Assembly (NCBI GenBank): GCA_024276815.1
Contig: JAJRWM010000223.1
Span: forward strand, 1-9,496
Reading direction: 5' to 3'
Origin: a bacterium
Lineage (GTDB): Bacteria > JACRDZ01 > JAJRWM01
DNA length: 9,496 nt
The notes below the pieces were generated by a model, which was not told the DNA's origin, ran no database searches, and saw nothing but the letters and a program-made list of their open reading frames with translations. Shown piece by piece: positions 1,483 to 4,831 of this stretch (its first letter is position 1; every line of letters starts with the position of its first letter). The position numbers were made by a program, and so were the translations under genes.

Positions 1483-3153
1483 CTAACGTTCCCGATTAGC
1501 TCCCGTGAGCGGTAGCCCATTCAGAACGTCCTGAATTATAGGGTTGGCCGGTAATATTCTTCCCGCTCTTTCCAGCCAATAGCGCGCTTGTACAACGTTG
1601 TCTTCATTCAGGTATAATTGCCCCAGATTAAAGCAGGCTTCACCATGTTCAGGGTTGAATTCCAGGGCCTTCAGGAAAGCTTTTTCGGCTTGGCGATTCG
1701 AGCCCGCGTTGGCGTAAAAGAATCCCAGGTTGTTATAAGCGAGATCATAGCCTGGTCCCTTTTCCGCGGCCTTGATATACGCCTTTTCCGCTAAATTCAT
1801 CTGGCCCCGCTCAACATAAAAATCACCCAGCGTCGAGTTGAAGTTCAGATATTCCGGGCTGAGTTTTCGCGCGCGCTGGAAGGCGGTAAAAGGAATGTTG
1901 GGGTCGATGCCGGGCTTGGTCAGCAAAAACTCGCCCACCAGTGAATGGGCGGCGCCATAGTTTTCATCTGCCTGCCAGGCCAGCTTGGCGTACTCCTCCG
2001 CTTCCTGAGCTTTTCCCGTGGCAATCAGCAGGTTAGCTAACTCCACCATGGCCGTTGGGTCTTCCGGCACTTTTTTCAAATACGCTAAATAAAGTTGTTC
2101 CGCCTCTTCAATCCGCTCCCGGTTTTCAGCCAAACGAGCTTCATAAAGCAGAATATCCGAATAAAAAGGATCGTTTAGGGAACTCTTTTGCCGGGCGGCT
2201 CGCGCGGTCTTTTCCTCTCCCAGCCCTTGGGCGATTTTACTCAGCAGGTAATAATCCAGACCACCGCCCGGGTTTTTCTTTATCGCTTCCAGGGCGTATT
2301 CTTTTGCTTTGCCGTAATCCTTGTTGTTATAAGCCGCCAGCGCGTCGGACCGTAGCCGGAAGAGCTGCCAGAAAATTTTATCGTTTTTCATCGGGTCAGT
2401 GAGATACTGATGGACAGCCGCGCCCCAGAAACGGTAAATCGCCGGGGTATAGCCGCCGCTGATGGAAGTGGCTATGGTAGCCATTTTGACATGCAGCTTT
2501 TTGCCGGCTAGCTTTTCCAGGAAGGTTGTCAGATCCGCGAGAAGAGGCGACCGGCCCTCTGTATAATAAAAAGAGCGGAAGGTGAAATAATCCAGGTCCA
2601 GATCAAAGAGGACGTCCTGGTCAAGACTCGGCAGGTTGTGAAGATTACAGATGATAATTTTGGTCTGATAAAGCTTGCCCTGGTAGGTCCCGCCATACTT
2701 TTCAAAACTATTAATGTCGTCAAGATCAATCTGTCTTTGATGATTGTTCAGCACCTCCTTGATCTTGTTTAACATCCCCGCGCCCCGCGACATTTCCTTG
2801 TCCGGAACCACCCAGTAAATCCTTTTGATCAAACCGCTATTAATCGCCGGATAGATAAAGTTATCCCGGGTCAGGATTTCGTTGCGCTTCGAACCGAAAG
2901 GAGTTTCCTGCTCAATCATGGCCAGATCTTTGGGGCTGAGCCAGTTTAAATCCAGATGGGTGTCGATATGGACGAGAATTTCATTCTTTAGCGCCGGCTG
3001 ATGGCGTTGCCAAAGCTTGTAACTTTGTTTGTGATTATCGACAACCTGAACATTTTTCAGCGGCTCGACGCCCAGGACCGGGGCCTGAGGGCCGGCTGAT
3101 TCGCAACCCGGCAACATTAAGATCAGGAAAACAATGATTACGATTTTTCGCAT
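1483..3153 (-). CDS. Lipoprotein with arginase-like UPF0489-type domain and TPR repeats
   Basis: The 556-residue protein starts with a short hydrophobic signal ending in LPGC, with Cys17 the predicted lipidated residue and Glu at +2. Residues about 55-250 carry HIDTHLDL (62-69) and DLDLDYF (184-190). These resemble the two metal-ligand motifs (DxHxD and DxDxD) of the ureohydrolase/arginase fold, in the form found in UPF0489 proteins, a family that from memory includes peptide arginases converting arginine in peptides to ornithine. From about 265 to 537 there are roughly six TPR units, clearest at 471-502 and 506-537. A metal enzyme or binding domain displayed outside the cytoplasm on a TPR scaffold is inferred; the substrate is unknown. 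An in-frame TTG at 3162 overlaps the kinase stop as TTGA. I prefer ATG 3153, which has AAGG 9 bases upstream and gives a normal signal peptide. The stop is TAG. The gap to the kinase stop is 5 bases, so the two are probably co-transcribed. Confidence 0.82.
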   Translation of the reverse strand: MRKIVIIVFLILMLPGCESAGPQAPVLGVEPLKNVQVVDNHKQSYKLWQRHQPALKNEILVHIDTHLDLNWLSPKDLAMIEQETPFGSKRNEILTRDNFIYPAINSGLIKRIYWVVPDKEMSRGAGMLNKIKEVLNNHQRQIDLDDINSFEKYGGTYQGKLYQTKIIICNLHNLPSLDQDVLFDLDLDYFTFRSFYYTEGRSPLLADLTTFLEKLAGKKLHVKMATIATSISGGYTPAIYRFWGAAVHQYLTDPMKNDKIFWQLFRLRSDALAAYNNKDYGKAKEYALEAIKKNPGGGLDYYLLSKIAQGLGEEKTARAARQKSSLNDPFYSDILLYEARLAENRERIEEAEQLYLAYLKKVPEDPTAMVELANLLIATGKAQEAEEYAKLAWQADENYGAAHSLVGEFLLTKPGIDPNIPFTAFQRARKLSPEYLNFNSTLGDFYVERGQMNLAEKAYIKAAEKGPGYDLAYNNLGFFYANAGSNRQAEKAFLKALEFNPEHGEACFNLGQLYLNEDNVVQARYWLERAGRILPANPIIQDVLNGLPLTGANRER

Positions 3154-3158
3154 GAGAG

Positions 3159-4685
3159 TCAACCTTGTTCGCTTCGTCTCTCGATTCGCAGGAAATATTT
3201 GACTTTAATATTTAACTCGCGCGCTTTGAATGGTTTTAGCAGGTAGGCGTCAAAGCCGGAACCGTAAATATCTCTCTTCAGCAGGAAGGAGTTTCTGGGC
3301 GCCAGAGCGATAACCGGTACCCGGCTGAGCCGTTCACCGTTTTTTATTCTGGCCAGCAGATTGTTGCCGTTAGTTTTTGATGTTAGCAGATCAATGATAA
3401 TTAAAGCCGGGTTTTTCTTCTTCAGCAGCTTGAAAGCGTCATCAGGGTTATCGGCACAGGTTAGGTCGAATTCCTGTCCCAGCGCTTTTTCAATCACCTG
3501 AAGCGTTTTAACCTGGCCGTCAACAATCAGGAGCCGGGGCTTGGCCTCGATTTTTACATAATCCTGAGACATCGCCACCCGCCGGTCATAAGGTAAACGG
3601 ATAAAAAAGTGACTGCCCTTGCCAACGGCGCTTTCAACCCGGATCTCGCCGCGGTGCGCTTCAATTATTTCTTTGCTGATAGCCAGCCCGAGACCGGTTC
3701 CCTTTTCTCCCAGGGTTCCCTTTTTACTGCTTTTTTGATAGCGGTTAAATAAAACAGCTAAATTTTTGGGCGGGATGCCAACCCCGTTATCCTCAACCTC
3801 AATCATAAACGAAGTCTTGTCCTTGGGGTAAGCGCGAACAATAATGACGCCGTTTTCAGGCGTAAACTTGTTGGCGTTGGAGATCAGGTTGTTGATAACC
3901 TGTTTCAGGCGGGTGAAATCGCCTTTCATCACCGGCATATTGCTGGTGATTTCCAGTAACAGCTTCTGTTTTTTAATATCGCAAAGAATGCCCAGTTCAT
4001 CCGTCGCCATCTCCAGCAGCATCGGTATTTCCACGTCCGAGATCCTGAGCTCCAGCTTCCCTTCCTCCAGCCTGGAGATGTCCAGCAGATCGTTAACCAG
4101 GTTGAACATGTGACGGGAGCTTTCCAGTATCGTATGCACGACTTCCTCCTGCTCCGCGCTCAAGGCCCCGATAGTCCCTTCCTGCAAGAGCATCGTGTAG
4201 CCGATAATCGCTGAAAGCGGTGATTTTAAATCGTGGGAGACCATGGAGAGTAATTCGCTTTTAAGGCGGTTCAGTTTTTCATACTCCAGGGCTTTATGAT
4301 CCAACTCGCGGAACAATCGCTTTATTCTTAACATGGAGTTGACACAAGCCAGGAATTCATCCGTCTCAAAAAATTTACCCAGATAACTGTCAGCCCCCAG
4401 CTTGAGAGCGAGCGTTCGGCTTTCCGAGTTGTTCAGGGCGGACAGGATCATGACCGGAACATGTTTATTGGCTTGGTTTTCCCGGATCATACGGCAAATA
4501 TCATAACCGCTGAGACCGGGCATGACCAGGTCCAGAATAACCAGGTCAAGTTTTTACCGGGCCGAAATTTCCAGTCCTTCTCTACCGCCCAGCGCGGTAA
4601 AAACTGTGTGATTTTCCTGCTCGAGATAGAGTCTCAAGGCTTCCAGAATAGCGTCGTCATCGTCGATGACCAGTATTTTCGGCAT
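3159..4685 (-). pseudogene. Hybrid histidine kinase (REC-HisKA-HATPase-REC) interrupted by one in-frame TAA
   Basis: Read from ATG 4685, which has AGGAAG a few bases upstream, this is 508 codons with a single TAA at 4556-4554 (codon 44) and no change of frame. Receiver 1: acidic pair D8/D9, phospho-acceptor D52 in VILDLVMPG, Ser82, Lys104. HisKA: SHDLKSPL with His151. HATPase: N box NNLISNANK (about 265-273), G1 DNGVGI, G2 GEKGTGLGL. Receiver 2 is degenerate: LLIVDG with only one acid of the pair, Asp432, Lys484, and Ala where Ser/Thr is usual. There is no transmembrane segment, so it would be a cytoplasmic phosphorelay kinase. Without readthrough the products are a 43-residue stub and, if translation restarts at ATG 4523 (poor ribosome site), a 454-residue kinase lacking D52. 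A point nonsense mutation, a sequencing error or readthrough are all possible; everything downstream is intact. It ends 5 bases before the TPR lipoprotein gene. Confidence 0.8.
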
Positions 4686-4711
4686 GGGCGTCTTCCTATC
4701 GGCTTTATGGG

Positions 4712-4720
4712 TATATACCA
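4712..4720 (-). promoter_or_regulatory. Candidate extended -10 promoter for the histidine kinase gene
   Basis: On the minus strand the sequence reads TGG-TATATA (4720-4712), an extended -10 element without a recognisable -35. Predicted initiation near 4705 leaves a leader of about 20 nt containing the kinase ribosome binding site (AGGAAG). It lies in the 146-bp gap after the upstream lipoprotein gene. The gap also holds a short palindrome, CTATC/GATAG at 4771-4783, of unknown meaning. Confidence 0.3.
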
Positions 4721-4831
4721 GAAACCATGATTTAAGTTTTAGACGGGACAACCTTTAATGTGATTATTGCCTATCGCGGATAGCAACCATGGCCGGGCTT
4801 CAAAACAATCTGCCTGAAAACCGGGAAAAAC

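What the first reader, a model, noticed from the sequence alone, without database searches (positions are those of the whole stretch)
1483..3153. Exported arginase-like (UPF0489-type) domain fused to TPR repeats
HIDTHLDL and DLDLDYF keep the candidate metal ligands of the ureohydrolase fold, but the protein has a lipoprotein signal and about six TPRs. Known peptide arginases act in the cytoplasm on ribosomal peptides. A surface-anchored version on a peptide-binding scaffold would be a new setting: extracytoplasmic arginine-to-ornithine modification, or a binding domain that has lost activity.
Basis: partly seen in the sequence, partly recalled or inferred. Interest (0 to 1): 0.75.

Follow-up and report, generated by a model that had tools for sequence, protein, structure and literature searches.

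The report
Exported peptide-arginase-like TPR lipoprotein
This gene encodes a protein anchored outside the cytoplasm that carries an apparently intact relative of enzymes that turn arginine into ornithine inside peptides; its close relatives sit inside peptide natural-product gene clusters, whereas this exported branch does not, so it may modify exported peptides or proteins, which nobody has tested.

Summary
The 556-aa minus-strand protein (1486-3153) has a lipoprotein signal, a UPF0489 (PF12640) domain above the Pfam cut-off, and about eight TPR-type repeats. All six metal ligands of the peptide arginase OspR (PDB 8BRP) are present and rank in the top 12 of 222 domain columns. The only convincing solved-structure match by sequence is OspR (profile E 1.7e-12). 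It is not a singleton. UPF0489-TPR proteins occur in many phyla and fall into two sorts. Those without a signal peptide sit in RiPP-type clusters in 22 of 25 loci (radical SAM, PqqD, HPr-kinase-like, Asn synthetase), and seven of these loci have candidate precursors, several with Arg-rich cores. The exported sort, which includes the window protein, has none of these markers in 8 of 8 loci, and a single exported clade is not rejected. Exported relatives can lose ligands: three lack the metal site and one has His-to-Asn. Best reading: an extracytoplasmic peptidyl-arginine hydrolase-type domain, probably catalytic here, on a TPR scaffold that brings the client. Catalysis, substrate and lipidation are inferred. 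It is a new variant of a known kind.

The parts
1483..3153 (-). CDS of the exported UPF0489-TPR protein, 556 aa, ATG start, stop codon 1483-1485
   Evidence: homologues of the same domain order in other phyla
3103..3153 (-). Signal peptide with lipobox, aa 1-17 MRKIVIIVFLILMLPGC (Cys17 as the lipidated residue; +2 is Glu)
   Evidence: sequence; other exported relatives have lipoboxes or signal peptides. Lipidation inferred; Pro at -2 is atypical
2380..3057 (-). UPF0489 / peptide-arginase-like ureohydrolase domain, about aa 33-258, without the OspR dimerisation insert
   Evidence: Pfam PF12640 29.2 bits; NF052474 1.6e-14; profile match to 8BRP 1.7e-12; hhalign to OspR-type set 99.1%, 9e-19; model pLDDT mostly above 90
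3031..3039 (-). Motif 1 D39-N-H41: H41 = OspR H12 (Mn ligand), D39 = OspR E11
   Evidence: alignments; OspR roles from PMC10028609
2950..2964 (-). Motif 2 D64-T-H66-L-D68 = OspR D39, H41, D43 (Mn ligands)
   Evidence: PMC10028609
2590..2604 (-). Motif 3 D184-L-D186-L-D188: D186 and D188 = OspR D165 and D167 (Mn ligands)
1516..2379 (-). TPR-type helical repeat array, aa 259-546, 17 helices, about 8 repeats
   Evidence: Pfam TPR families up to E 8.9e-18; model; fold matches to consensus TPR and PilW/PilF
3159..4523 (-). Upstream co-directional histidine kinase / receiver gene; its stop lies 5 bp before the ATG of the lipoprotein, so co-transcription is plausible
   Evidence: spacing only, operon inferred

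Best explanation
The gene encodes an exported, probably lipid-anchored member of a UPF0489-TPR family. Its N-terminal domain has the peptide-arginase type of ureohydrolase fold and a complete dinuclear metal site (H41, D64, H66, D68, D186, D188). The most likely mechanism is that a metal-activated hydroxide attacks the guanidine carbon of an arginine held in a peptide or protein, releasing urea and leaving ornithine, as in OspR. The TPR superhelix, found in a family that lacks the OspR dimerisation insert, would hold the client protein or peptide at the membrane. The exported branch probably shares an ancestor with cytoplasmic RiPP maturases and has moved the chemistry to exported clients. Shown here: domain identity, ligand conservation, export signal, the family split by gene context. 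Inferred: metal binding, catalysis, peptide substrate, lipidation and which membrane face.
For: Domain identity: PF12640 above cut-off, NF052474 1.6e-14, 8BRP as the only convincing PDB match with plain sequence E 0.003 and exported-family profile E 1.7e-12 across three segments including the C-terminal SGYTP block, hhalign 99.1% to OspR-type sequences. All six ligands kept and among the top 12 of 222 columns. The AlphaFold model has the domain at high confidence, with the ligands at the C-terminal ends of strands 35-38, 58-63 and 180-186. Ser230 matches OspR Ser264 and Asp39 matches Glu11, not the Glu277 of free-arginine arginases. Signal-less siblings lie in RiPP-type clusters in 22 of 25 loci, next to candidate precursor peptides, some Arg-rich (CRKTATSRVNPKRGTSCRACRTTYRSS, L053), which supports a peptidyl-arginine substrate type for the family. 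Exported members recur in several phyla and one exported clade is not rejected (p-AU 0.635). The genome encodes an Omp85 protein, so an outer membrane is likely.
Against: No activity data. The window copy has Asp in place of the Glu near the first His ligand, which most relatives keep. No RiPP precursor, PqqD or radical SAM gene lies near it, so the family's substrate logic is not carried over, and the genome's one PqqD/radical SAM pair is on another contig. Exported relatives L040, L041 and L087 have lost the metal site and the L038/L054/L055 group has Asn for the first His, so activity is not required for the exported role everywhere. Metallation of such a site after Sec export is uncertain. 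The lipobox has Pro at -2. No homologue was found in the three other genomes held for the phylum.
Confidence: 0.5

Rival explanations
1. The exported UPF0489 domain is a binding module, not an enzyme: it binds arginine-containing peptides or a partner, and the TPR array scaffolds a cell-envelope complex.
For: Three exported relatives keep architecture and export but lack the ligands (L040 D-A-N-L-E and S-I-S-L-S; L041; L087), and one group has His to Asn. Ligand loss occurs among exported (4 of 10) but not signal-less TPR members (0 of 25), Fisher p 0.004, not corrected for phylogeny.
Against: The window copy and five other exported members keep all six ligands at roughly 30% identity or less, which is hard to explain without selection for metal binding.
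Confidence: 0.25
2. It is a metallohydrolase of another small guanidino, amidino or acyl-amide substrate in the periplasm, not of peptides.
For: The ureohydrolase fold covers agmatinases, formiminoglutamases and others (PMC10028609); the natural substrate is unknown, and the OspR dimer insert thought to help bind long precursors is absent.
Against: Sequence kinship is to peptide arginases and not to PF00491 (no PF00491 hit; hhalign to the genome's own agmatinase-like protein 1.2%). OspR does not accept free arginine. Siblings are linked to peptide precursors. A TPR array suits a protein client.
Confidence: 0.13
3. It is a RiPP maturase acting in trans on an exported RiPP made elsewhere in the genome, for example by the PqqD/radical SAM pair on contig C50.
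For: The genome has one PqqD gene next to a radical SAM/SPASM-like gene, and signal-less siblings lie in such clusters.
Against: The pair is on a separate contig and no precursor of the sibling type was found in the genome (weak test) or in the window. All exported loci examined lack RiPP neighbours.
Confidence: 0.07

Closest known systems
OspR, peptide arginase of landornamide A biosynthesis (PDB 8BRP, PF12640)
   Same: All six Mn ligands in three motifs; the Ser at the position of arginase Glu277; the SGYTP end motif; profile E 1.7e-12
   Different: OspR is cytoplasmic, about 300 aa, with a 65-residue dimerisation domain and a RiPP precursor in its cluster; the window protein is exported, lacks that insert and carries a TPR array
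FlmR/OhkR-type peptide arginases (NCBIfam NF052474)
   Same: Detectable match over aa 35-191, E 1.6e-14
   Different: 54 bits against a cut-off of 350; different architecture and context
Signal-less UPF0489-TPR proteins of radical SAM/PqqD or Asn-synthetase clusters (found here; Omnitrophota, Elusimicrobiota, Acidobacteriota and others)
   Same: Same domain order and ligand set, about 20-30% identity
   Different: No signal peptide; in 22 of 25 loci next to RiPP-type genes; no ligand losses
Conventional arginase/agmatinase (PF00491)
   Same: Ureohydrolase superfamily chemistry and ligand types
   Different: Not matched by sequence; acts on free small substrates; no TPR, not exported
TPR lipoproteins such as PilW/PilF and XrtA/PEP-CTERM PrsT
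   Same: Exported TPR array, significant but sub-cut-off matches (fold)
   Different: No UPF0489 domain

Membership tests
UPF0489 / PF12640 | Score above the Pfam gathering cut-off | tested here: met
   29.2 bits vs 27; 28.6 on the genome
Peptide arginase (OspR-type) | Six metal ligands in the three motifs EEH, DxHxD, DxDxDYF | tested here: met
   H41, D64, H66, D68, D186, D188 aligned to OspR ligands (PMC10028609)
Peptide arginase (OspR-type) | Conserved Glu of the EEH motif (OspR E11 proposed to contact the guanidine) | tested here: not met
   D39-N-H41 in the window; nearly all relatives have Glu at the Asp39 column. Conservative change, effect unknown
Peptide arginase (OspR-type) | Three-layer alpha/beta/alpha ureohydrolase fold | tested here: inconclusive
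   Full-length model confident with fitting strand order, but fold searches were filled by the TPR part and the domain-only model was poor; supported by sequence profile only
Peptide arginase (OspR-type) | Dimerisation domain (OspR 170-234) | tested here: not met
   Profile alignment skips OspR chain residues 177-238; only about 20 residues at that place
Peptide arginase (NCBIfam NF052474) | Curated score cut-off 350 bits | tested here: not met
   54.1 bits
RiPP maturase | Precursor peptide and other maturases in the cluster | tested here: not met
   No PqqD, radical SAM, Asn synthetase or precursor in the window; contig ends at the window's end
Peptide arginase (OspR-type) | Arg-to-Orn activity on a peptide with urea release | not testable with these tools
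   needs an assay
Bacterial lipoprotein | Signal peptide with lipobox and invariant Cys | tested here: met
   MRKIVIIVFLILMLPGC; Pro at -2 atypical; read by eye, no signal predictor was run; lipidation itself not testable
Conventional arginase/agmatinase PF00491 | Match to the family | tested here: not met
   No PF00491 among the 25 best hits at E up to 1; the genome has a separate agmatinase-like PF00491 protein, and the window locus is not among its matches

The most novel reading that the evidence does not exclude
A clade of envelope-anchored peptidyl-arginine hydrolases that converts arginine to ornithine in exported proteins or peptides outside the cytoplasm, with a TPR array selecting the client: a post-translational modification of the bacterial cell surface not known before.
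Probability: 0.33. Interest if true: 0.8.

Novelty: new variant of a known kind. Interest (0 to 1): 0.6.

Why it matters
Peptide arginases are known only from a handful of cytoplasmic RiPP pathways. This survey points to (1) a large, apparently undescribed sub-family fused to TPRs that sits with precursor peptides, some Arg-rich, in radical SAM/PqqD or Asn-synthetase clusters of poorly studied phyla, and (2) an exported branch outside any such cluster. If the exported branch is active, ornithine could be present in mature envelope proteins of these bacteria, which is directly testable by mass spectrometry (-42.02 Da on Arg). If it is not, it is a clear case of an enzyme fold turned scaffold, with ligand-less relatives already in hand.

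Tried and rejected
Single-sequence scan of genome contigs found nothing; the A3 alignment scan found 35 loci. A viral-contig scan found no relatives. PDB fold searches with the full-length model listed TPR proteins only, and the second structure job, the domain without an alignment, gave pLDDT 39 and was not used; folding the domain with an alignment would have been the better use of that job. A search for the sibling precursor type in the window's genome rang nowhere, a weak test. No neighbour conserved among all exported loci was seen. A link of exported members to multihaem cytochromes was considered: 3 exported loci but not the window; kept as a lead, since these genomes are rich in such genes (the window's has 71 Paired_CXXCH matches). 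Chance occurrence of the motifs was rejected. Free-arginine arginase was rejected as the closest kin.

Full report
What is there. The ORF at 1486-3153 on the minus strand encodes 556 aa (stop 1483-1485) and begins MRKIVIIVFLILMLPGC, a Sec-type lipoprotein signal with an LPGC box. Pfam finds UPF0489 (PF12640) at aa 35-124, 29.2 bits against a cut-off of 27, and several TPR families in the C-terminal half. NCBIfam's peptide arginase model matches aa 35-191 at E 1.6e-14, far under its cut-off of 350 bits. In the window's genome this is the only UPF0489 gene found.

Metal site. In OspR, the peptide arginase with a crystal structure, the Mn ligands are H12, D39, H41, D43, D165 and D167 (PMC10028609). 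They align to H41, D64, H66, D68, D186 and D188 of the window protein. In 36 aligned relatives these columns rank 2, 4, 5, 8, 9 and 12 of 222 domain columns. Ser230 corresponds to OspR Ser264, which replaces the catalytic Glu277 of human arginase. Asp39 stands in the place of the conserved Glu of motif 1, for which a guanidine contact is proposed in OspR (Glu11); most relatives have Glu there.

Fold. An AlphaFold model of the full protein, with 36 sequences, has mean pLDDT 86.4 and pTM 0.82; most blocks of the N-terminal domain exceed 90 and the ligands sit at the ends of strands 35-38, 58-63 and 180-186. The PDB searches with this model were filled by TPR proteins, so the domain's fold was not tested by structure comparison. 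By sequence profile, the only convincing PDB match is 8BRP, E 1.7e-12 for the exported members, in three segments that skip chain residues 177-238, which is essentially the OspR dimerisation domain. Profile-profile comparison with six OspR-type sequences gives 99.1%, E 9e-19, while the genome's own agmatinase-like protein gives 1.2%. The TPR part has 17 helices, about eight repeats.

Relatives. Profile searches found the same architecture in other genomes, by record titles in Omnitrophota, Elusimicrobia, Acidobacteria, Thermodesulfobacteriota, Nitrospirae, Aminicenantes, Armatimonadetes and others. They fall into two sorts. One has no signal peptide. The other is exported: the window (lipobox), L027 (twin-arginine-like TRRQF plus LPGC), L037 (signal peptide), L038/L054/L055 (signal peptide, near-identical), L056, L059, L062 (lipoboxes), and the ligand-less L040, L041 and L087. 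Signals were read by eye. On a tree of the domain the exported label needs three changes against 9.1 in shuffles, and a single exported clade is not rejected (p-AU 0.635, slightly higher likelihood when enforced). The window's nearest rows are exported ones, at 30% identity at most.

Context. Profiles built from recurrent neighbours were run over all loci with flanks. RiPP-type genes (radical SAM with PqqD, small PqqD proteins, B12-radical SAM, HPr-kinase-like, nucleotidyltransferase/GNAT, or an asparagine synthetase as in lasso-type clusters) occur at 22 of 25 signal-less UPF0489-TPR loci and at 0 of 8 distinct exported loci, Fisher p 1.2e-5 without correction for phylogeny. The three signal-less exceptions (L060, L066, L067) form one clade. 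Six of the cluster loci carry a small gene with leader KKxYxKPxIxEVKL and a Cys-containing core that in L046, L048 and L053 is rich in arginine, for example CRKTATSRVNPKRGTSCRACRTTYRSS; L065 has lasso-like candidates. The YxxP leader element is, from general knowledge, that of lasso-type leaders bound by PqqD-like domains. This makes the signal-less siblings likely peptide arginases of undescribed RiPPs; it is inference from context.

How it probably works. The window protein is exported and most likely lipid-anchored; Omp85 in the genome suggests an outer membrane. [quoted passage not shown] The main rival is a binding module: among 10 distinct exported members four have altered or lost ligands, against none of 25 signal-less ones (Fisher p 0.004, same caveat). 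Six exported members, including the window's, keep all ligands over long divergence, which favours continued metal chemistry there.

Surroundings. The gene starts 5 bp after a histidine kinase/receiver ORF on the same strand, with a lipoprotein gene, tyrS and a Fic gene further upstream; an inositol-3-phosphate synthase gene lies convergent. The contig ends at the window's end, so no wider context is available.

Literature. In the held library UPF0489 occurs in four papers and 'peptide arginase' in six, none of them together with TPR. The absence of a report there is not proof of novelty.

Verdict. A real, conserved and interesting variant of the peptide-arginase kind; the exported setting is well supported, catalysis is not shown.

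Noticed in passing
window 4554-4556 (minus strand): An in-frame TAA interrupts a receiver-histidine kinase gene: the receiver N-terminus (4554-4751) and the rest (3159-4523) share one frame. Either a natural nonsense change or an assembly error.
   Followed up: partly
L043 8645-8800, L044 9768-9953, L045 7613-7783, L046 9512-9697, L048 9589-9780, L053 9788-9943: Candidate RiPP precursor family: leader KKxYxKPxIxEVKL, Cys-containing and often Arg-rich core, next to UPF0489-TPR, radical SAM and PqqD genes.
   Followed up: partly
L046 5474-8446 and L049 5471-8338: In Elusimicrobia the UPF0489-TPR protein is fused in frame to a B12-binding radical SAM protein, and in L046 also to a C-terminal PqqD-like domain.
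   Followed up: no
L065 6887-7066, 8506-8694; L058, L063, L064, L068, L069: UPF0489-TPR genes beside PqqD, HPr-kinase-like and Asn-synthetase genes, with lasso-like precursor candidates in L065: possible ornithine-containing lasso peptides.
   Followed up: no
L071 5599-6969 and L072 5281-6906: In the cyanobacteria Roseofilum and Moorena, a degenerate UPF0489 domain with an apparent C-terminal 2OG-Fe oxygenase-like part lies directly upstream of an intact peptide arginase.
   Followed up: no
L056 3088-7860, L077 8882-15001, L080 1374-5492: Three exported UPF0489-TPR loci lie next to giant multihaem cytochrome genes (19-27 CxxCH); none of 22 signal-less loci do. The window's genome is rich in such proteins but not near this gene.
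   Followed up: partly
L040 946-2451, L041 1210-2454, L087 (550-aa frame, minus strand): Exported UPF0489-TPR relatives that have lost the metal ligands: apparent pseudoenzymes.
   Followed up: partly
L032 612-2172: A separate TPR lipoprotein-like gene directly precedes a single-domain UPF0489 gene: the two parts as neighbouring genes.
   Followed up: no
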